In this document: piece after piece, positions 2,558-57,609 of the stretch
How the letters are laid out: each line of letters opens with the position of its first letter
Position numbering within the stretch: the stretch's first letter is position 1
Source of the DNA: Gammaproteobacteria bacterium
GTDB lineage: Bacteria; Pseudomonadota; Gammaproteobacteria; HTCC5015
DNA: 64,000 nt
Reading direction: 5' to 3'
Assembly (NCBI GenBank): GCA_013817245.1
Contig: JACDDA010000007.1
Span: 62,001 to 126,000 of the forward strand
Notes under the pieces: model-generated
Seen by the model: only the letters and a program-made list of their open reading frames with translations
What the model was told of the DNA's origin: nothing
Databases searched by the model: none
Translations under genes and position numbers: made by a program

Positions 2558-5500
2558 ATGAACTTGCCTGATCTTGCCATTAAACGTCCCGTCTTTATCA
2601 CCTGCTGTTTCGTTTTAATTGCCTTGCTCGGTGCGCTGTCGATTACGCGTTTAGGTGTTGATACCTTTCCAGATGTCAGTTTTCCTATTGTGGTCGTCAG
2701 CACTACTTATCCGGGCGCGGCTCCCAGCGAAATTGAAACCTTGGTATCCAAACCCATTGAAGAATCCGTCGGCACCTTGTCGGGTATTAAAACGATTCGT
2801 TCAACGAATAAAGAAAGCATTAGTTTAGTCATCGTGGAATTTACCCTTGATACCGATGTTAAATACGCTGAACAACAAGTTCGCGATCGCATCGCCACGG
2901 TAAAACCCAAATTACCCGATGATGCGGAAGAACCCATTATTAAAACCGTTAATCCCAGTGACCAACCGATTTTAATTCTCGCCTTATCAGCAGATATGCC
3001 ACCAGCAGAATTGTATGACCTCGCGGATCAATCGATACGACCTTTATTGGAACAAGTAAAAGATGTAGGTCAAGTTGAAATCGTAGGCGCACGCAAACGC
3101 GAAATTCAAGTATTACTGGATCGCAAAAAACTAAAAGCTCGCGAACTTTCAGCAAGCCAAGTTGCTACTCAATTAGCAATGGCCGGCACCAATATTCCTG
3201 CAGGTAAAACTAACTTTAATGGCCAAGAAATCATCATCCGTACATTGGGTGAATATGATTCACTCGACGATATTCGCTCCACACTGATTAATTTTTATGG
3301 CAATGAGACACCCACACAAATAAAAGATGTAGCGGAAGTACGTGATGGCTTAGAAGATGAAGAAAGCCGCACGTTTATTAATGGAAAACAAGCATTGACG
3401 CTGTATGTTTACCGTCGCTCCGGCGCCAACACTATCGCAGTCGTCGACATGGTAAAAACGCGCATTAGTAAAATCAATCAAACTTTTACGCAGCAAACAT
3501 CGACTTTTGATTTGGCCATTGTGCGTGATGGCAGTAATGAAATCAGAGCAAATGTTCTTGACGTAGCAGAATCCATCGCTCTTGGTATTTTGCTAACCAT
3601 TACCGTCGTGTTTTTATTTTTAGGTAACGCGCGTTCCACGTTTATCACCGGCATTGCATTGCCTAACTCCTTGTTAGGCGCATTTATTTTAATGATGGTC
3701 GCTGGTTTTACCGTCAACATCATGACCTTATTAGCCATGAGCTTAGCGGTAGGTTTATTAATTGATGATGCCATTGTGGTGCGCGAAAATATTTTTCGAC
3801 ATATTCAACTTGGCAAAAGTCCACGTGAAGCGGCGAGTCTCGGCACACGTGAAGTCGCATTAGCCGTAATTGCCACCACCTTTACGGTGATCGCCGTATT
3901 TGGTCCTGTAGCATTCTTACAAGGTGTCGTTGGGCAATTTTTTAAAGAATTTGGTTTAACCATTTGTTTTGCCATGCTCATCAGCTTATTAGATGCATTC
4001 ACGATGGCGCCGATGTTGTCAGCCTATTTAGCCGGTCGCAATGCACCTGCCGTTCGACGTAATTTTATCAGCCGCGGAATTGGATATGTGACGGATAGTT
4101 TTGAGCGCGGCCAAACTCATTTAGAAAATTTTTATGTGAAAACCTTACACTTTACTTTACGTTGGCCCTTGCTCGTATTAAGCATTGCATTAGCGATATT
4201 TGTTTTCAGTTTCTTTGCGATTGCCAGCGTACCAAAAACATTTTTGCCGCCTGCAGATACAGGTGAATTCATGGTTACCATGGATATGCCGCCTGGCACT
4301 GATTTACAACAAACAAATAAAGTCGCTGACGCTATTGATCGTGAATTACGTCAACGCAGCGAAGTTACTCGTACAGTAATGGCAGTGGGCGGCAATAACG
4401 GTGAACCTAATGAAGCCAATATTTATGTACAGCTAGTGCCGCGCAAAATGCGCAGCATGAACACCTCAGAGTTCAAAGAAATAGCGCGCGGCATCGTTGC
4501 ACCTTACGCCTATGCGTCGCCTAAAGTACAAGATCCCACCGCAATGGGTGAAGACGAACAACCTTTTAATGTCAGCATTATTGGGGAAGATTTACAACAA
4601 ACTCAAAAAATCGCCACTGATTTATATGAACATATTAAAAATCATCCTGATTTAAAAGATGTAGATATTAGTTATCGGCCCGGCAAACCCGAACTTCGCG
4701 TAGTGCTCGACCAACAACGCGCCAAGATACTGGGTGTTTCCACGCAACAATTAGGACAAGAACTACGCACTCATATTGAAGGTAGCGTGCCGGCAATGTT
4801 TCGAGCGAATGCTCACGAATATGATATTCGCGTACGTTTATTACCCGAGCAGCGTAATCTTAAAGAAAACTTTTCCACAACATACGTTCCTAATTTTAAT
4901 AATCGTCTAATTAAATTATCGGATGTCGCCAAATCTACCGAAACCGACGGCCCTGCTACTATTTATCGTCAAGACCGAGGTCGCTACATTCAAGTCTCGG
5001 CCGAATTAAATCCTGACGGGCTGGGTATGGCGCGCGCTATTGCCGACGTGAAAAAATATTTAAGCACTGGCGAAACCAAAGTACCGCCCAATATTCGTTA
5101 TGAATTTGTTGGTCAAGCAGAAAATTTTGAAGAGTTAAATAAAAACATTAGCATCGCGATGTTGCTTGCCGTCATTTTTATTTATTTTGTACTCGCCAGC
5201 TTGTACGAATCATTTATCACGCCTTTCACTATTATGTTGGTATTGCCTTTAGCGATTTGCGGCGCATTTTATGGTTTAGCTATTACCGGTTCATCGCTGG
5301 ATATTTTTTCTATGATCGGGACTATTTTGTTATTAGGGATCGCCACCAAAAATTCCATTTTGTTGGTTGATTACATCAAACAAATGACCGACCAAGGGGA
5401 ATCTATTGCAGAGGGTATTATCGCCGCGGGTAAAACTCGTCTGCGTCCCATTATTATGACGTCAGTAGCATTAATTGCGGGCATGTTGCCGGTTGCAATT

Positions 5501-30975: not shown

Positions 30976-31155
30976 ATGCAAACACCTAAACAAAATGCCA
31001 TTGAAGCTATCCAACAATTACCGGATGCCGTTGATATGGAAGAAATTATGTACCGCCTATATGTAATCGACAAAGTTCATAAAGGTCAAAACGATGTCCG
31101 CGAAGGCCGTACTATCACAGCCGGAGACCTACGCCGCGAGATGGATCAATGGTAA
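30976..31155 (+). CDS. Antitoxin of a RelBE/ParDE-type pair
   Basis: A 59-residue protein starting MQTPKQNAIEAIQQLPD and ending GDLRREMDQW. The middle (VDMEEIMYRLYVIDKVHKGQ) is helical, and GRTITAGDLRREMD fits the C-terminal toxin-binding tail of small RelB/ParD-like antitoxins. The reading frame overlaps the toxin gene by seven bases (ATGGTAA arrangement), the normal antitoxin-toxin order. GAGGCG lies about ten bases before the start. Confidence 0.8.
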   Translation: MQTPKQNAIEAIQQLPDAVDMEEIMYRLYVIDKVHKGQNDVREGRTITAGDLRREMDQW

Positions 31156-31451
31156 TTTGGACCTTGAGCGCCAAACAAGACCTACGACAAATTTACAACT
31201 TCATTGCTTCCGATTCCGTCCATTACGCCAAAAAAGTCACTGACGATATTTACGCAAAACCCAACACCCTCGACTTATTGCCACGATTAGGCAGAATTGT
31301 TCCCGAAATAAATGACGAAACCTTAAGAGAAATTTCTGTTTATTCCTACCGTATCATTTATCAAATTCATCAAAAAAATATCTATGTGCTGACCATTATC
31401 CACAGGCGACGCGATCTAAAAATAGATGATTTAGGAAAAATTAATACTTAA
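31149..31451 (+). CDS. RelE/ParE-family toxin
   Basis: A 100-residue toxin with the RelE/ParE fold: VIWTLSAKQDLRQIYNFIA at the N-terminus, a central LGRIVPEINDETLREI turn, and the C-terminal strands YSYRIIYQIHQKNIYVLTIIHRRRDL. The last His-Arg-Arg is typical. It may act on gyrase (ParE branch) or cleave mRNA (RelE branch); the YRIIYQI...IIHRRRD pattern leans to ParE/RelE plasmid-stabilisation proteins. It directly adjoins the repeat-rich accessory stretch. Confidence 0.85.
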   Translation: MVIWTLSAKQDLRQIYNFIASDSVHYAKKVTDDIYAKPNTLDLLPRLGRIVPEINDETLREISVYSYRIIYQIHQKNIYVLTIIHRRRDLKIDDLGKINT

Positions 31452-31485
31452 TTCATTATGCATTTATATTTCACCATACAACACA

Positions 31486-31715
31486 AAGCGTTTCGCTCGT
31501 CGCTGCGCGACTACAGCGAGTAACTTTGATTGCCATGGATGGCATGAATGCAGATTTTGCAGGAGCAAAAATCTGCTGTCGTAACAAGAAATTGAATATT
31601 CTTATAAAAGCAGAAGCGTTTCGCTTGTCGCTACGCGACTACAGCGAGTAACTTTGATTGCCATGGATGGCATGAATGCAGATTTTGTAGGAGCAAAAAT
31701 CTGCTGTCGTAACAA
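31486..31715 (+). repeat. Two tandem copies of a 102-bp hairpin module
   Basis: 31486-31587 and 31614-31715 are the same 102-base unit with few differences. Each contains a CGACTACAGCGAG terminal part, the small palindrome GCCATGGATGGC (loop ATGGAT) and a long stem (left arm 31550-31560, right arm 31565-31576 in copy 1) capped by an AGGA tetraloop. The module also occurs, reversed, within the 57 kb element. Confidence 0.9.
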
Positions 31716-31797
31716 AAAGTCACCAAACGCCGCTCTCTTGCATCCCTGCAATCGCGGCATTCGAACATCCTGTTCATCAATACTCTCCCCGATGTCT
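31706..31797 (-). repeat. Inverted copy of part of the 33 kb hairpin element
   Basis: This stretch is the reverse complement of about 33234-33325 with about one mismatch by eye. On the minus strand it gives stem-loops GAAC-AGGAT-GTTC and TTGC-AGGGAT-GCAA. Further along the minus strand are GCGAC-AAGGAC-GTCGC (31863-31878) and a 9-bp stem with an AGGAA loop (31888-31910). With the 33 kb copy it flanks about 1.4 kb in inverted orientation. Confidence 0.88.
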
Positions 31798-32193
31798 CGC
31801 TGCGCGTAAACAAACACGTGCAGTCTCCTCGTATTGCGCAACTTGTAACGGGTCGTCCCGATGCGACGTCCTTGTCGCGGCGGAACTAAAACAAACTTCC
31901 TGTTTGTTTTCCCCGACAAGTCGTGCAACACTCAGCGAGCCACGAGGGGAATGCTCCTTCGTTATTTATTGTGATTAATCAAATATCGACAAATGCGTGA
32001 ATATCACAGGAGTTACAAAACAAAGAGGAAAGCACCCCTATACAAGATAGCGACGCTAGCAACTTTCTATTACGACAAAAAGTTACTCACTGCAGTCGGG
32101 CAGCGATTGGTATAATTCTTTTCTTTGTGAAAATTTTTTACAGTATAGTTAGCAGAACGTTTTTGCTATCAAAAACATACCATGCCTTTGTGA

Positions 32194-32736
32194 TTAAAAA
32201 AACAGTTTTGCAATGACAGCAAAGAACGCCATAAAATATGGAAAATAATATTGTCCAAATTTTTCAGTTTTAAATGCAATATATAAAAACAATGTTAATT
32301 TCCTAAATACCTGATTAGGTTTTATTTTAAAAAATTCTTGAGCGCTGCGTGTTCCTGCTTTTACTTGCCACTGCCATAAACCAAACACGGGTTGGTAAGT
32401 ATCGCCGTCATATGCACTTGTTCCGTCCTTTGTTTCTTGTTTCAACCATTTGCCCATGAGATCAGACTTATACATAGAATGCGTATATGAAAGCCAATCA
32501 TTCTTATGATTGGAAAACTGCCAAAATCGCAACAAAAACCAAGCCAACATAATCCAAGCAAAATAAGCTAGCACTTGTGGTTTTTTAAAAGTAATGCTGC
32601 TGGCAAGTACTGATATAGTAGAAACATGCTCTTGATTTCCTAAATGGGCATCTCCTAGCGCAAACAAAATGAAACCCGTAGAAAGGACCACCAAATTTCT
32701 TCGTGCGGACTCTAGTGATGATGTATCAATATCCAT
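32194..32736 (-). CDS. Unknown membrane protein
   Basis: A 180-residue protein without recognised domain. Hydrophobic stretches at about 13-30, 52-75 and 160-180 suggest two or three membrane helices. The middle loop is rich in Trp, Lys and Tyr. It stands alone between inverted repeat elements, in an island with a toxin-antitoxin pair, so horizontal acquisition is possible. No function can be given. Confidence 0.6.
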   Translation of the reverse strand: MDIDTSSLESARRNLVVLSTGFILFALGDAHLGNQEHVSTISVLASSITFKKPQVLAYFAWIMLAWFLLRFWQFSNHKNDWLSYTHSMYKSDLMGKWLKQETKDGTSAYDGDTYQPVFGLWQWQVKAGTRSAQEFFKIKPNQVFRKLTLFLYIAFKTEKFGQYYFPYFMAFFAVIAKLFF

Positions 32737-32783: not shown

Positions 32784-33149
32784 TCAATTATCCAACGCAG
32801 CTCCCCACACTTCATAAAACTCTATCTCTTTATGTTGCTGCGCGTCCACGACATCTTTGTAAACAGCAATCGCAGTGTATTTTTTACCGTCGCTGCGTGC
32901 TTCGATCAGGACAACACTCATGAAGGCCATGCCGATAATACCATTTTCCATTTTAGCGCCGTAGGGCGCAATACGCGTAGCGCATTGCGCCCTACGTTTC
33001 TTTGTTTTCGATGCTAAGGCACATTCAGCTTTATAATTATCAAAAACTGTAATGATATTAAACCAAGGGAAAAACCCGTTATGGCACGCTGAGGCATATT
33101 TAAAGGCTAGCGGCACATGAACAGGGATGTTCATGTGAGCCGATCGCAA
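32784..33149 (-). pseudogene. Chimeric reading frame, probable gene remnant
   Basis: A 121-codon frame whose parts have different origins. Its first 25 codons or so lie in the hairpin element starting at 33075, the middle crosses the palindrome 32960-32996 (encoding RRAQCATRIAPYG), and only the last 55 codons, from Met in KMENGIIGMAFM, look like ordinary protein. The C-terminal piece may be the remains of a gene cut by repeat insertion. No homologue recognised. Confidence 0.35.
32960..32996. repeat. REP-like palindrome
   Basis: CGTAGGGCGCAAT (32960-32972) pairs with ATTGCGCCCTACG (32984-32996), with a further short inner stem ACGC/GCGC. Such GGGCGCAAT palindromes are widespread extragenic repeats in proteobacteria. 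A single copy is seen in this window. Confidence 0.8.
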
Positions 33150-33369
33150 CAGGATGTGCGTGGAGGCGACGCGTCAGCCTTTAAATATGACGAGGGAATA
33201 CGGAAATGGAATTTCATTCCATTTCCGTACGTGATATCGGGGAGAGTATTGATGAACAGGATGTTCGAATGCCGCGATTGCAGGGATGCAAGAGAGCGGC
33301 GTTTGGTGACTTTTTGTTACGACAAAAAGTCACTCGCTGTAGTCGCGTAGCGACGAGCGAAACGCTTTT
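33075..33369 (+). repeat. Modular hairpin element A with GGA-loop stem-loops
   Basis: A 295-base element sharing its ends with the 57 kb copy. Stem-loops on the plus strand: ACATGAAC-AGGGAT-GTTCATGT (33115-33136); CGCA(a)C-AGGAT-GTGCG (33145-33160); a 14-bp stem with TTC loop (33199-33229); GAAC-AGGAT-GTTC (33254-33266); TTGC-AGGGAT-GCAA (33278-33291) inside an outer GCCGC/GCGGC pair; a 12-bp stem with TACG loop (33306-33333); and a terminal GTCGC-GTA-GCGAC hairpin. Four loops carry AGGA or AGGGA, matching CsrA/RsmA sites. No protein is likely. Confidence 0.85.
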
Positions 33370-33410
33370 GTTTGTAAAATATTGATACGCGACCAACTAA
33401 TAAAATACTT

Positions 33411-38559: not shown

Positions 38560-40539
38560 TTATTCAAAACGATAGGCAAGACTTAACCAAGTGTTGCTGC
38601 CCGTGGCGGGATAATAAGCTCCAAACGAGTTAGCATAATCGTAGTATTGTGCATTAAACAAATTATCAATGCGCAAACCCAGATTCCACTGATTGACGCT
38701 GTAGTTCAAGGTGAAATTACTCACGTTGTAACCTGATAGTGGATCTGCTGCATTATCGTTATCACCGGGCAAATATTGTTTGCCGATACGTTTAGTTTCA
38801 AACGACAGGCTAACATCCGCGAGCTGATAATTAACCGCGCCACGGATCACATTTTCGGGCACACCTGAAACATCGTTACCGGCAAATACACCTGAACGGA
38901 ATTCTGCTTTAGTTAATGTATAAGCGCCGACAAAACTCAATGCGGATGTTGCATTAACGCCAAGCTCTAAAGTGCCGCCCACACGCCGCGTTTCATCAAA
39001 GTTCACATTGGCGCCCGGAAAAAATCCACCACTGTCTGCGCTTGGGTCAAACGCAATTTCGTTTTGCAAATCTAATAAGTACGCGGATGATTTAACGTAC
39101 AGAACATCACTTTGCCATTGTGCACCTAATTCCCAGGTATCACCGGTTTGCACTTCTAAGCCATTGCTACCCAACGCCGTAAAAGCTTGTTCATCTACTT
39201 TTGCAAAACGATAGTTTTGATCAAAACGTACAAACAATTTTAAACTTTCAATGGGTCGCAACGTAGCGCCTAACGAGTAAACGGTAACACTGTCATCGTG
39301 TTTTAAACCATCGGGATAGTCAGTAGCATCGGTTAACTCATCATCGACCTTGGCAGTCCGTAAGCCCACCGTTACACCCAACATCGGCAATACAGGAATC
39401 ACCGTATTGGAATAAAGCGATTCAGTTTGTTGTTGATTGCTGCGATCAAAGTCACCAAAACTACTAGGAATAAAACTTTTATAATCCGAATCAATCCTTT
39501 CAAAACCTAAAGCACTCACCAACTCACCTGCGCTTAATTGATAACGCGCTTCAATTTGCGGATTTACTGTGTTTTGCTCGCGCAGACTATTACCTGGATC
39601 AGTAGTGCAGGAACTAAACAAAGCGCAGCCACTAAAGTTTTGCAAAAAGACTTGTTCATCTCGCGCACGTGTGACATCTAATTGCGCACGAAAATGTTCT
39701 GCAAAACCTAACCATACTTGCGCATGACCCGTATCGGTATTGCTATTAATATAATCATTTTCAAAATCTTCATAGGAAATACGCGGCGAACTTTTTGCAT
39801 CGTCTTCCGATAAAGCGCCCGCTGTTTGTTGTTTTTGTTCTGCACCTTGGTATTCCAACAAGCCACCGAATGATTCAAAGGTAAATTCATTGCGTACGCT
39901 AACAAATGTTTCATCAACTTTACTGTGCTCACGATAACCATCGGTGTGACGATCGCTTGCATTGACACGTAAACCATAAAAACCCCATTGCTGACTCGCG
40001 CCTACATCCGCTTGATAAGTGTTATAAGCACCGACACCCACTTTCGCATAAGCACGTAATGCATCAGCTTTGCGAGTAATAATGTTTATCACACCACCGA
40101 CGGCTTGATCGCCATAAACTGTACCGGCGCTGCCTTCAATAATTTCAATGCGTTCAACATCATCTAAAGCGATGGTATTTAAATCGGGTGCAGCGATGTC
40201 GGTATTGTTTAAACGTCGCCCATCAATTAAAACTAATACGTTAGAACCTGCTGATTCACCAAAACCACGCATATCAATAACCGCACCGGTGCCAGGATTA
40301 GTAACGCTAATGCCTGCACGACCTAATAATATTTGATCTAGCGTGACGGCATTGCTCGCTAAAATTGCCGCGCGATCAATGACGGTGAAACTTGCGGGTA
40401 AATAAGTGGTTGCAGATTCCGTGCGTAAAGCGCTAACAATAGTTTCCGGTAATGCACTGCTTTGCGCCCCGCAAACAGTGTTAGACGTTAACAACAATAC
40501 GGGCAATAAACATAACCCGTTTAATAAACGTTTTTTCAT
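38560..40539 (-). CDS. btuB: TonB-dependent outer-membrane receptor, BtuB-like
   Basis: A 659-residue outer-membrane receptor, most likely for cobalamin. A signal peptide (RLLNGLCLLPVLLLTSNTVCGA) precedes the TonB box (ETIVSALRTES). The plug domain (about 45-160) includes VLVLIDGRRLNN and GSAGTVYGDQAVGGVINIITRK; the rest is a 22-strand barrel ending in an aromatic residue followed by Glu (LAYRFE). Start 40539 follows AAGGGGA; the longer frame runs into the leader. The cobalamin riboswitch upstream and btuCDF nearby support the substrate. Confidence 0.93.
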   Translation of the reverse strand: MKKRLLNGLCLLPVLLLTSNTVCGAQSSALPETIVSALRTESATTYLPASFTVIDRAAILASNAVTLDQILLGRAGISVTNPGTGAVIDMRGFGESAGSNVLVLIDGRRLNNTDIAAPDLNTIALDDVERIEIIEGSAGTVYGDQAVGGVINIITRKADALRAYAKVGVGAYNTYQADVGASQQWGFYGLRVNASDRHTDGYREHSKVDETFVSVRNEFTFESFGGLLEYQGAEQKQQTAGALSEDDAKSSPRISYEDFENDYINSNTDTGHAQVWLGFAEHFRAQLDVTRARDEQVFLQNFSGCALFSSCTTDPGNSLREQNTVNPQIEARYQLSAGELVSALGFERIDSDYKSFIPSSFGDFDRSNQQQTESLYSNTVIPVLPMLGVTVGLRTAKVDDELTDATDYPDGLKHDDSVTVYSLGATLRPIESLKLFVRFDQNYRFAKVDEQAFTALGSNGLEVQTGDTWELGAQWQSDVLYVKSSAYLLDLQNEIAFDPSADSGGFFPGANVNFDETRRVGGTLELGVNATSALSFVGAYTLTKAEFRSGVFAGNDVSGVPENVIRGAVNYQLADVSLSFETKRIGKQYLPGDNDNAADPLSGYNVSNFTLNYSVNQWNLGLRIDNLFNAQYYDYANSFGAYYPATGSNTWLSLAYRFE

Positions 40540-40545
40540 GGGAAG

Positions 40546-40580
40546 ATCCCCTTGTGAACAATAATAAATATTGCGGGGAT
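40546..40580 (-). promoter_or_regulatory. Hairpin masking the btuB ribosome-binding site
   Basis: On the minus strand ATCCCC (complement of 40575-40580) can pair with GGGGAT (complement of 40546-40551), the latter being the btuB Shine-Dalgarno. This fits a riboswitch that controls translation initiation. Inferred by eye, not folded by program. Confidence 0.5.
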
Positions 40581-40641
40581 GAGTGGCGGGATAAAAAATA
40601 AAATATTCCCGCACGTGGCCCACCGCAACGTGTTTAATATT

Positions 40642-40865
40642 CACAGGCCGGTATCCGGGCTGACGGTTGAATGTTTAAACGCATGATTTAAATATGCTTT
40701 AAATATTCGGCTTCATACCTTCCCATATTATCTATTGAATGTTGAAACATTCATGTAACTAACACAGTGGTTATTTATGAAGCTATAACCGATCACCGTT
40801 GCGGGGGCAGCGTTGGTATTTCACCAAACTTCCCGTTTAACGCGTGCAATGACGAGCACCTGTAA
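40642..40865 (-). ncRNA. Cobalamin riboswitch upstream of btuB
   Basis: Read on the minus strand, the conserved pieces come in order: GGTGCTCGTC at the 5' end (40851-40860), GGTGAAATACC, the core CTGCCCCCGCAACGG (about 40796-40810), GGGAAGG, and the B12 box AGCCCGGATACCGGCCTGTG (about 40643-40662). This is the classic AdoCbl riboswitch layout. Binding of cobalamin would shut down btuB. The switch lies between btuD and btuB, so only btuB (and perhaps the adenosyltransferase) is under it directly. Confidence 0.95.
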
Positions 40866-40900
40866 ACGTGTGCGCACAGTACTTAGACTGAAGTAAAAAA

Positions 40901-54923: not shown

Positions 54924-57008
54924 TTATTTTTTCTCAGCGCTTTCTTCTTTAGCCATAAATTGCTTTGCTTGCTCAAGGCCCGCTGCAGCCGCTTTTTGAA
55001 TCCATTTCATCTCCTCTGAATCATCACGCGGAACACCTTCGCCGCGGCCATACAACATCCCTAAATTATATTGTGCTGATGCATGATTTTGATCCGCTGC
55101 TTTTCGAAACCACTTATATGCCTCCACATAATCTTGAGCAACACCTTTTCCATCGTAATACATTACCCCTAAATTAAATTGAGCTGACGCATAACCCTGC
55201 TCTGCTGCTTTACGATACCATTTAGATGCTTGTAAAAAATCTTTCGTAACTCCTTTGCCTCGATCATACATTACCCCTAAATTATTTTGTGCTGCCGCAT
55301 AATTATGCTTTTCTGCTTTAAGATACCAATTCAACGCCTCAACAAAATCTTGCGGAACACCTTCGCCTCGGTCATACAGCATCCCTAAATGATATTGTTC
55401 TTGCGCTCCATTCTGCTCTGCAGCTTTACGATACCATTTATATGCCTCTACAAAATTTTGCGAAACACCTTCACCTCGACTATACATCTGTCCTAAATTA
55501 TATTGTGCTGAAGCATTATTTTGATCTGCAGCTTTCCGATACCATTTAGATGCCTCTACAAAATTTTGCGAAACACCTTCACCTCGACTATACATCTGTC
55601 CTAAATTATATTGTGCTGAAGCATTATTTTGATCTGCAGCTTTCCGATACCATTTAGATGCTTCTGCAAAATCTTCTGGGACTCCGTAACCCTCGTAATA
55701 CATTATCCCTAAATTATATTGTGCTGAAGCATCATTCTGCTCTGCTGCTTTACGATACCATTTATATGCTGCTACCAAATTTTGCGGAACACCTTCGCCT
55801 TGGCTATACATTACCCCTAAATTATATTGCGCTGAAGCATTATTTTGATCTGCAGCTTTCTGAAACCATACTAAGGCTTCTGCAAAATCCTGCGCAACAC
55901 CCTGCCCTTTGTAATACGTCAGCCCTACATTGAATTGCCCATCTCTATCATTCTGCTCTGCTGCTTTCCGGAACCATTTCAAAGCTTCTGTAAAATTTTG
56001 CGGAACGCCTTTACCTTTCGCGCACATCACTCCTAAATTCAATTGCGCTTTCACATTATTCTGCTCTGCTGCAATTCGATACCATTTAGATGCAGCTACA
56101 AAATCTTCTACAACACCTTGACCCTTCTCATGCATGCCTCCTAAATCATTTTGTGCGGCCGCGTAATTCTGCTCTGCTGCTTTTCCATACCATTTCAAGG
56201 CCTCTACAAAATCTTGTGGAACACCTTCGCCTCGAAAATACATAACCCCCAAATTATACTGAGCTAATACATTATTTTGATCTGCTGCTTTGCGAAACCA
56301 CTTATATGCCTGTGCAGAATCTTGTAAGGCGCTAGCATCTTTCAGATACATTAACCCTAAGCTAATTTGTGCTGCTTCATGATTCTGATCTGCAGCTTTT
56401 CGATACCATTTCAATGCTTCTCCAAAATTTTGCGGAATACCTTCTCCTCGGTCATACAACACTCCTAAATTATATTGGGCTTGTGCCATATTTTTTTCTG
56501 CTGCTTTACGATACCACTGCGAGGCCTCTACAGAATCTTGCAGAACACCTTCACCCCGATCATACAGTACCCCTAAATTATATTGTGCTTCTCCATGATT
56601 TTGATCTGCTGCCTTCTGAAACCATACCAAAGCTTCTGAAAAATCCTGCGCAACGCCTTGCCCTTTGTAATACATAAGCCCTAAATTAAATTGCGCTGAT
56701 GCATTACCATGATCGGCCGCTTTACGATACCATTTCAATGCCGTCACAAAATCTTGTGTAACGCCTTGACCTTCTGCATATATAAGGCCCAAATACACCT
56801 GTGCAATTATATTTTTGTTTTCAGCAAGCTGTAAAAATAATTTTAGAGCTTGCTTATACTGTTTTTCATCATAAGTATTAATAGCTTTTTTTAATTCAGC
56901 AGAAGTATCTAATAATATTTTAGAATTTATCGCATCGTTTTCAACAGCGAGAGCTAAAGCACTATTTGCCAGCATAAAGATATAACAGATTAATTTTTTA
57001 AATCGCAT
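54924..57008 (-). CDS. Exported Sel1-repeat protein
   Basis: A 694-residue protein made almost wholly of about 18 Sel1/TPR-like repeats of 36 residues, consensus EALKWYRKAADQNNASAQYNLGVMY with G-x-GVPQDF endings (shown in parts). A signal peptide (RFKKLICYIFMLANSALALA) directs export. Such solenoids bind protein partners. Start 57008 has AGGG upstream; the frame to 57083 is unlikely. It is convergent with the CHASE2 kinase. Repeats 11 and 12 are identical at DNA level, showing recent expansion. Partner unknown. Confidence 0.88.
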   Translation of the reverse strand: MRFKKLICYIFMLANSALALAVENDAINSKILLDTSAELKKAINTYDEKQYKQALKLFLQLAENKNIIAQVYLGLIYAEGQGVTQDFVTALKWYRKAADHGNASAQFNLGLMYYKGQGVAQDFSEALVWFQKAADQNHGEAQYNLGVLYDRGEGVLQDSVEASQWYRKAAEKNMAQAQYNLGVLYDRGEGIPQNFGEALKWYRKAADQNHEAAQISLGLMYLKDASALQDSAQAYKWFRKAADQNNVLAQYNLGVMYFRGEGVPQDFVEALKWYGKAAEQNYAAAQNDLGGMHEKGQGVVEDFVAASKWYRIAAEQNNVKAQLNLGVMCAKGKGVPQNFTEALKWFRKAAEQNDRDGQFNVGLTYYKGQGVAQDFAEALVWFQKAADQNNASAQYNLGVMYSQGEGVPQNLVAAYKWYRKAAEQNDASAQYNLGIMYYEGYGVPEDFAEASKWYRKAADQNNASAQYNLGQMYSRGEGVSQNFVEASKWYRKAADQNNASAQYNLGQMYSRGEGVSQNFVEAYKWYRKAAEQNGAQEQYHLGMLYDRGEGVPQDFVEALNWYLKAEKHNYAAAQNNLGVMYDRGKGVTKDFLQASKWYRKAAEQGYASAQFNLGVMYYDGKGVAQDYVEAYKWFRKAADQNHASAQYNLGMLYGRGEGVPRDDSEEMKWIQKAAAAGLEQAKQFMAKEESAEKK
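55443..55658 (-). repeat. Exact 108-bp tandem duplication in the Sel1 gene
   Basis: 55443-55550 and 55551-55658 appear identical by eye over three 36-base codon-rows, equal to one Sel1 repeat unit of 36 codons. Neighbouring units differ at many positions, so this pair arose recently by slippage or unequal recombination. Confidence 0.85.
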
Positions 57009-57609
57009 ATAAGCCCTAGGTTTTAAAATCACAATCACTTCCGTATATTTCATCCTTGTTATGATGGCATGAATTTTACCCATATTTTTATCTGATGCAC
57101 CAATTTAAATAAACCGATCTTCAATTCTTTTCATAAGCAGTTCGAATAAAGTCTCATGCGCCAACACAATCTGAGAGGAATGGCTGGGGTCTTCCCGGGG
57201 GTTGCCTGTAAATATCAGGCTCTATCCAGAGTTACATTTTAATTAGCCGGCGCATGCTTTTTAACGTGTATATGAAACGAAGCGACAACGCCCGTTATGG
57301 TGTGCCGAGTTGTGTTTAAGGGGTAACGGCACATGAACAGGGATGTTCAGGTGAGCCGAGCCGCGATAGGACATCGCGTCTCGGCGACGCGTCAGCCTTT
57401 AAAGATAACGAAGAAATACTGGAATGGAATTTCATTCCATTCCAGTACGTGACATCGGGAAAGTATTTTTTGGTGACTTTTTGTTACGACCGCAGATTTT
57501 TGCTCCTGCAAAATCCGCATTCATGCCATCCATGGCAATCAAAAGTTACTCGCTGTAGTCGCGCAGCGACGAGCGAAACGCTTTTAAATGTTACAAATAA
57601 ACTAAAAAC
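57009..57609. other. Gene-free stretch with hairpin element C
   Basis: About 600 bases. The first 280 hold only the Sel1 gene promoter side and a small GCCTG/CAGGC hairpin (about 57205-57221). The rest is the 295-bp element at 57291-57585. No credible protein gene. Confidence 0.65.
57291..57585 (+). repeat. Modular hairpin element C with GGA-loop stem-loops
   Basis: Shares both ends with element A at 33075-33369. Stem-loops: GAAC-AGGGAT-GTTC (about 57340-57353), CGCGAT-AGGAC-ATCGCG (57362-57378), a 14-bp stem with TTC loop (57417-57447), and a terminal GTCGC/GCGAC hairpin. It lacks the two middle GGA hairpins of A but has the AGGA-tetraloop/ATGGAT module inserted, reversed, within the hairpin that is intact in A. 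Stem sequences differ from A with pairing kept. Confidence 0.85.

What the first reader, a model, noticed from the sequence alone, without database searches (positions are those of the whole stretch)
31863..31910. More GGA-loop hairpins of different sequence beside the inverted element
Seen on the minus strand: GCGAC-AAGGAC-GTCGC (31863-31878) and a 9-bp stem of A and C with an AGGAA loop (31888-31910). They are unrelated in stem sequence to elements A and C but again expose AGGA or AAGGA. Two further such hairpins on the same strand are 31738-31751 and 31763-31775, giving four in about 170 bases.
Basis: seen in the sequence. Interest (0 to 1): 0.55.

Follow-up and report, generated by a model that had tools for sequence, protein, structure and literature searches.

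The report
Scattered repeats carrying CsrA-type RNA hairpins
The four hairpins are one arm of a repeated, strongly folded RNA element scattered through this bacterial genome, whose loops closely match the binding site of the global regulator CsrA, so the repeats may soak up that regulator.

Summary
The four minus-strand GGA-loop hairpins are real, at the stated coordinates, and far beyond chance (4 against a shuffle mean of 0.04). They are not an isolated RsmY/RsmZ-like gene. Positions 31822-31938 (-) match Rfam TwoAYGGAY (RF01731, 42.7 bits, gathering score 43), a family of unknown function in the same Rfam clan as E. coli CsrB. The RNA is one arm ('alpha') of a dispersed element. The genome holds 18 element loci; at 14 an alpha and a homologous 'beta' arm point away from each other. 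Compensatory changes support the fold, also in another genus. GGA stays in the H1 loop of 32 of 32 arms while stems change. ACARGGAYGT, the core of the CsrA SELEX site, occurs 26 times in 11.8 kb of element and 0 times in 105 kb of flank. RF01731 occurs in 23 of 369 class genomes, all with csrA. My reading: dispersed CsrA-binding RNAs, probably sponges or 3'-UTR tags. CsrA binding of the family was proposed in 2014 (PMC4333381); I found no description of the repeat anatomy. Transcription and CsrA binding are untested.

The parts
31485..31718 (+). Outer end of the alpha side: two tandem 128-bp units (31486-31590, 31614-31718) holding H5 and module M2; M2 exposes GGA hairpins on the + strand (TGCCA-TGGA-TGGCA, TTTTGC-AGGA-GCAAAA)
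   Evidence: the repeat finder D3, 96% identical; 4 GGA hairpins on + against a shuffle mean of 0.038; alignment of copies
31738..31775 (-). Optional module M1: two GGA hairpins (31738-31751, 31763-31775)
   Evidence: Present in some copies and absent in others
31800..31823 (-). Hairpin H3 of the alpha arm (no GGA in the loop)
   Evidence: Paired in 98.4% of cells in 14 alpha arms, mostly invariant
31822..31938 (-). Core of the alpha arm: TwoAYGGAY RNA, stem P1 enclosing H1 and H2
   Evidence: RF01731, 42.7 bits, gathering 43; fold z -6.47; 11 pairs with changes on both sides in 14 arms
31863..31878 (-). GGA hairpin H2 (ACAAGGACGT)
31888..31910 (-). GGA hairpin H1 (ACAGGAAGT)
32062..32110 (+). 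Degenerate extra H4-H5 end
   Evidence: the repeat finder D2, 74% to 33309-33388
32194..32736 (-). 180-aa open frame between the arms; no Pfam match; probably not part of the element
33075..33376 (+). Beta arm: P1 with H1 (33114-33137) and a damaged H2, H3 (33199-33229), M1 (33254-33291), H4 (33305-33333), H5
   Evidence: RF01731 33090-33189, 38.8 bits; fold z -9.39; inverted repeat 98% to 31705-31799
57291..57590 (+). Another beta-only copy in the window
   Evidence: RF01731 57296-57433, 43.5 bits, above gathering; repeats D4, D5, I2, I6

Best explanation
The hairpins are part of a TwoAYGGAY-type structured RNA that exists as a dispersed two-arm genomic repeat. Each arm, read outward, forms a stem (P1) holding two hairpins that present loops close to ACA-R-GGA-Y-GU, 24-26 nt apart, followed by plain hairpins (H3, H4, H5) and sometimes by extra GGA-hairpin modules. 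SHOWN: the copies, the fold (compensatory changes), the conserved GGA loops and SELEX-like motif, and an ordinary csrA gene in the genome. INFERRED: the repeats are transcribed, mostly as 3' extensions of flanking genes, which face inward at most loci; each arm binds a CsrA dimer across H1 and H2; and with 18 loci the repeats lower free CsrA (sponge) or tag the carrying mRNAs with CsrA.
For: RF01731 match and shared clan with CsrB. Covariation in 18 beta and 14 alpha arms and in 15 distinct H1 hairpins of another genus. GGA in the H1 loop of 32 of 32 arms and in H2 of 28 of 32; GGA-GGA spacing 24-26 nt wherever both are present. ACARGGAYGT 26 times inside elements, 0 in 105 kb of flank; 3 in the window, all in the three arms, 0.23 expected. 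SELEX consensus RUACARGGAUGU (PMC7652899, passages). csrA with L4 and R44 (which residues matter is recalled) in the genome and in 23 of 23 RF01731 genomes against 313 of 369 overall. H4 found without using GGA has GGA hairpins upstream in 11 of 30 loci, 0.71 expected. CsrA binding of TwoAYGGAY was proposed before from motif matches (PMC4333381, passages). In P. putida Rsm proteins pulled down intergenic sequences near ISPpu8, one a long palindrome (PMC7937890, passages).
Against: No transcript and no CsrA binding shown. Stems of 9-10 pairs are longer than in most SELEX ligands, which had four or fewer. No promoter-like site above chance. 3 of 18 beta arms have ACGA in place of GGA in H2, 1 of 14 alpha arms lacks H2, and the window's own beta H2 is damaged. 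19 of 30 H4 loci show no strict GGA hairpin upstream. The csrA co-occurrence is weak, because csrA is common, and is not corrected for relatedness. At 2 of the 4 beta-only loci (L052, L066) neither flanking frame would transcribe the arm in sense.
Confidence: 0.55

Rival explanations
1. A DNA-level repeat (MITE or REP/BIME-like): hairpins matter as folded single-stranded or cruciform DNA for transposition or recognition of the ends, and the GGA loops are incidental.
For: Inverted ends, dispersed copies, patchy distribution (23 of 369), three Y1 transposase genes in the genome, location at gene ends.
Against: GGA and the SELEX core are kept while stems change, and GGA is the top loop triplet upstream of H4 in other genomes; a pure DNA hairpin needs no particular loop. 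No clear target duplication seen; the flank test showed a shared, rearranged site, not an empty one.
Confidence: 0.2
2. Back-to-back sRNA genes: each centre carries a two-way promoter and each arm is its own CsrB-like sRNA ending at the outer terminator-like hairpin.
For: Arms point outward from the centre in all 14 two-armed loci of G000 and in 4 of 4 G364 pairs; T-rich tails after the outer hairpins, 6.3 T of 14 against 3.9 expected.
Against: The centre is the least conserved part; sigma-70-like sites are not above chance, 6 found against 4.8; four loci have a beta arm only.
Confidence: 0.12
3. Bidirectional transcription terminators or mRNA 3'-end stabilisers whose GGA loops do not bind CsrA.
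For: 11 of 18 loci between convergent open frames, 0 between divergent ones; terminator-like sites 9 against 2.2 expected.
Against: Does not explain the conserved ACA-GGA-GU loops or the fixed spacing.
Confidence: 0.1

Closest known systems
TwoAYGGAY RNA, RF01731 (Weinberg 2010, PMC2864571; CsrA proposal PMC4333381)
   Same: Covariance-model matches; two GGA-loop hairpins enclosed by a stem
   Different: Here it is one arm of a dispersed two-arm repeat with further hairpins and modules (H3-H5, M1, M2); loops include AGGAA and AAGGAC, not only AYGGAY; the finding's own copy is 0.3 bits under the gathering score
CsrB/RsmB sRNA, RF00018 (and, recalled, RsmX/Y/Z)
   Same: Many GGA-loop hairpins; same Rfam clan CL00106
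   Different: CsrB has 22 GGA and 6 strict hairpins in one 369-nt RNA, while arms here carry 2 core hairpins each and are spread over 18 loci; no CsrB match in this genome
RrA/RrB/RrF, E. coli sRNAs from rRNA operon ends that bind CsrA (PMC8144298, abstract read)
   Same: CsrA-binding RNA in several near-identical copies made by terminator read-through
   Different: Three copies tied to rRNA operons; no two-arm repeat described in the abstract
REP/BIME and MITE repeats (recalled)
   Same: Dispersed palindromic repeats at gene 3' ends
   Different: Two-arm elements here are about 0.55-0.65 kb, with a multistem fold and conserved GGA loops
Rsm-bound ISPpu8-linked intergenic palindrome of P. putida (PMC7937890, passages)
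   Same: Long palindromic intergenic sequence bound by RsmA, RsmE and RsmI

Membership tests
TwoAYGGAY RF01731 | Covariance-model score at or above the gathering score | tested here: inconclusive
   The finding's copy 42.7 against 43; 57296-57433 passes at 43.5; 21 of 30 genome copies pass
TwoAYGGAY RF01731 | Two hairpins with GGA loops inside an enclosing stem | tested here: met
TwoAYGGAY RF01731 | Loops of the form AYGGAY | tested here: inconclusive
   GGA kept; G000 loops are AGGGA, AGGAN, AAGGAC; other genera have ATGGAC, ACGGAC
CsrB / RsmY / RsmZ sRNAs | Match to the family model | tested here: not met
   Only RF01731 reported in the region at E up to 1; no RF00018 in the genome
CsrA-sequestering RNA (functional class) | Several GGA hairpins with CsrA-type loops | tested here: met
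CsrA-sequestering RNA (functional class) | Binds CsrA | not testable with these tools
   no binding data for this genome
CsrA-sequestering RNA (functional class) | Is transcribed and relieves CsrA repression | not testable with these tools
   no RNA-seq or genetics available
MITE / REP-type mobile repeat | Inverted ends plus target duplication or empty sites | tested here: inconclusive
   Inverted ends present; no clear duplication; flank test gave a shared, rearranged site
MITE / REP-type mobile repeat | Linked transposase | tested here: inconclusive
   Three Y1_Tnp genes in the genome, by coordinates none within 10 kb of the 18 loci; their target repeats were not examined

The most novel reading that the evidence does not exclude
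Gammaproteobacteria and perhaps other Proteobacteria carry a broad, so far unrecognised class of dispersed two-arm repeats, recognisable by the H4 end hairpin, that act together as a distributed CsrA sponge: by spreading, a genomic repeat family sets the cell's free CsrA level and hangs CsrA-binding 3' tails on neighbouring genes. TwoAYGGAY is only the fragment of it that Rfam captured.
Probability: 0.3. Interest if true: 0.82.

Novelty: new variant of a known kind. Interest (0 to 1): 0.6.

Why it matters
TwoAYGGAY has been an RNA of unknown function since 2010, and I saw no test of its proposed CsrA role (2014) among the papers that one search listed, of which I read passages of three. Seeing it as one arm of a dispersed repeat with near-ideal CsrA loops turns a guess into a test on many natural copies. 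If the repeats titrate CsrA, a repeat family sets the level of a global regulator, which would link repeat expansion to the control of metabolism, motility and biofilm.

Tried and rejected
Chance or low-complexity palindromes: rejected by shuffles, fold z-scores and covariation.

RsmY/RsmZ or CsrB family member: no Rfam match.

Protein-coding explanation: the open frames over the arms (for example 31602-31931 -) read straight through the hairpins, whose copies differ by stem-preserving changes, so I treat these frames as spurious.

The 1.1-kb stretch between the window's arms as captured cargo: weakened by a degenerate H4-H5 end at 32062-32110. An alpha remnant, a gene, and a separate beta-only element is simpler; four other loci have only a beta arm.

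Clean proof of mobility: the joined-flank search gave no empty site. In G270 the left flank lies beside an element and the right flank about 7 kb away; in G160 only the right flank was found, within a few kb of other elements. The site looks shared and rearranged.

Naming the organism: the first pattern scan gave 0 hits; the H4 scan gave four MAG records, none said to be this genome.

Promoters in the element: not above chance.

Full report
What was claimed and whether it holds. The four minus-strand hairpins are at the stated coordinates. A fixed rule (GGA in a loop of 3-7 nt, at least 5 Watson-Crick pairs) finds 4 in 31738-31910 (-). The mean in 1000 dinucleotide shuffles is 0.038 and the maximum 1. 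The plus strand of 31700-31970 has none, and all 271-nt stretches of the window with 3 or more such hairpins on a strand fall in this element. Folding z-scores are -6.5 (31822-31938) and -5.6 (31700-31970).

What it is. At relaxed threshold Rfam's TwoAYGGAY model (RF01731) covers 31822-31938 (-) with 42.7 bits (gathering score 43) and 33090-33189 (+) with 38.8. A third copy at 57296-57433 (+) passes at 43.5. The genome has 30 matches, 21 over the cut-off, while 0 of 14 control genomes have one. blastn with the region found 35 matches in the genome. Together these make 18 loci, which I fetched with about 3 kb of flank.

Anatomy. Aligning the loci gives two homologous arm types. Alpha occurs at 14 loci and beta at 18; at all 14 two-armed loci the arms point away from each other, around an AT-rich, poorly conserved centre. 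At 12 of these loci both arms show as RF01731 matches in the order minus, plus. Read outward, each arm has: a lead with AACGAAG, CCC and ATGG; a long stem P1 holding H1 and H2, the two GGA hairpins; H3 without GGA; sometimes module M1 (two more GGA hairpins); H4 (GTGACTTTTTGTTACGACAAAAAGTTAC or the variant GGTTACTTTCTTGTCGCGACAAGAAAGTAACC); sometimes module M2, whose GGA hairpins lie on the other strand; and H5. The finding's hairpins are alpha H1 and H2 plus M1. In the window the arms are 1.1 kb apart with a 180-aa frame and a degenerate H4-H5 end between them, so this locus is probably decayed or composite.

RNA-level selection. For 18 beta arms 97.7% of cells pair, 12 pairs have changes on both sides, and the covariation score is 0.194, against 0.097 shuffled and at most 0.058 when slid. 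For 14 alpha arms the figures are 95.9%, 11 pairs, and 0.192 against 0.092 and at most 0.046. The structures were derived from these same alignments, and the shuffle control ignores relatedness. In the genus of G160, G270 and G364, 26 H1 hairpins that I picked from the list (15 distinct) pair in 100% of cells, with 6 of 10 pairs changed on both sides and with A and GGA invariant in the loop. I took only those that fitted one 26-nt pattern; two H1-like hairpins of L136 and L139 with a 9-bp stem, and L130's right arm, were left out. Those copies were found with a model that itself favours GGA loops, so the loop there is not independent evidence; the stems are.

The loop. GGA is in the H1 loop of 32 of 32 arms and in H2 of 28 of 32 (3 beta arms have ACACGATG, one alpha arm lacks H2). 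The two GGA are 24-26 nt apart in the 28 arms where both could be measured. ACARGGAYGT occurs 3 times in the window, once in each of the three arms (0.23 expected), and 26 times in 11.8 kb of element against 0 in 105 kb of flank. Many copies are alike by descent, so 26 is not 26 independent events. The CsrA SELEX consensus is RUACARGGAUGU, with ACA and GGA in every ligand and the AC/GU pair closing the loop; most ligands had four or fewer pairs (PMC7652899, passages read). The stems here are longer, a point against tight binding. The strict GGA hairpin count gives 96 in the 18 loci and 21 in the flanks; one locus, L053, has 0 under this rule. E. coli csrB, used as a yardstick, has 22 GGA, 6 strict hairpins and no ACARGGAYGT, and falls in the same Rfam clan, CL00106.

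Spread. RF01731 is in 4 of 55 relatives, the window's own genome included, and in 23 of 369 class genomes. In 12 of these 23 searched again with laxer filters, copies run from 5 to 40, with back-to-back pairs again in G160, G270, G364 and G242; one pair in G160 faces inward. csrA is in 23 of 23 and in 313 of 369 overall; by hand arithmetic that is about a 2% chance, uncorrected for relatedness. To avoid the GGA bias I searched for H4 alone: 19 of 369 class genomes have it, and the reversed control pattern shows 0 in every listed genome. Of 31 matches, 30 became loci and were read: 11 (in 8 of 19 genomes) have a GGA hairpin of 6 or more pairs on the sense strand within 260 nt upstream. Shuffles predict 0.71; the antisense strand has 1, the downstream side 4 on either strand, and GGA is the commonest of 64 loop triplets in hairpins of 7 or more pairs. 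The pattern did not match G000 itself, whose H4 is a variant. A separate scan of named genomes gave four MAG contigs. Reading them by eye, three show a GGA-loop hairpin shortly before H4, though none scores as RF01731. So the element class is wider than the Rfam model.

Place in the genome. By open frames of 80 or more codons, 11 of 18 loci lie between convergent frames, 7 between frames in the same direction, and 0 between divergent ones; short frames make this approximate. Outer ends carry T-rich tails after GAGCGAAACGCTT-like hairpins. So an inward transcript of a neighbour could run through the far arm in its sense orientation and end there. Promoter-like sites are not above chance.

How it most likely works. 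Shown: repeat, fold, loop conservation, and csrA with an ordinary sequence. Inferred: transcription by read-through, one CsrA dimer bridging H1 and H2, and titration of CsrA or tagging of the carrying mRNA. A parallel may exist in P. putida, where RsmA, RsmE and RsmI all pulled down intergenic ISPpu8-associated sequences, one of them a long palindrome (PMC7937890, passages); I could not reach that sequence. E. coli has CsrA-binding sRNAs made by terminator read-through (PMC8144298, abstract).

Against what is known. TwoAYGGAY was found in 2010 (PMC2864571, passages), and PMC4333381 (passages) proposed in 2014 that it binds CsrA, calling for validation. Searches of the paper library for TwoAYGGAY, for CsrA with repeats, sponges or mobile elements and for ISPpu8 did not show me a description of TwoAYGGAY as a dispersed two-arm repeat. 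Subscription papers are missing from that library, and I read only listings, abstracts and passages.

Noticed in passing
window 31149-31451 (+): ParE-family toxin gene of a type II toxin-antitoxin pair (Pfam PF05016, 65 bits) directly left of the element, facing it.
   Followed up: partly
window 55028-56772: About 16 tandem copies of a 108-bp unit, 71% alike; probably 36-residue protein repeats of the Sel1 kind (recalled, not tested).
   Followed up: no
window 40629-40878 (-): Cobalamin riboswitch (93 bits) just upstream of a 694-aa frame at 38560-40644 that looks like a TonB-dependent receptor (my reading of the frame).
   Followed up: no
L170, L171, L172 (named MAG contigs): The H4 hairpin of this element occurs in MAGs labelled Proteobacteria, Alphaproteobacteria and Gammaproteobacteria, each with a GGA-loop hairpin just before it.
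   Followed up: partly
L056 right of the element (about 3640-3690): A run of 20 or more G beside one element copy; possibly an assembly or phase-variation feature.
   Followed up: no
L060, alpha side, module M2: M2 holds a short tandem expansion of GCCATTCAT units, so the modules themselves grow by slippage or duplication, as the doubled unit at window 31486-31718 also shows.
   Followed up: no
G012, G188, G292 copies: Several RF01731 copies lie at or near contig ends in draft genomes, so the repeats may break assemblies and copy numbers may be underestimates.
   Followed up: no
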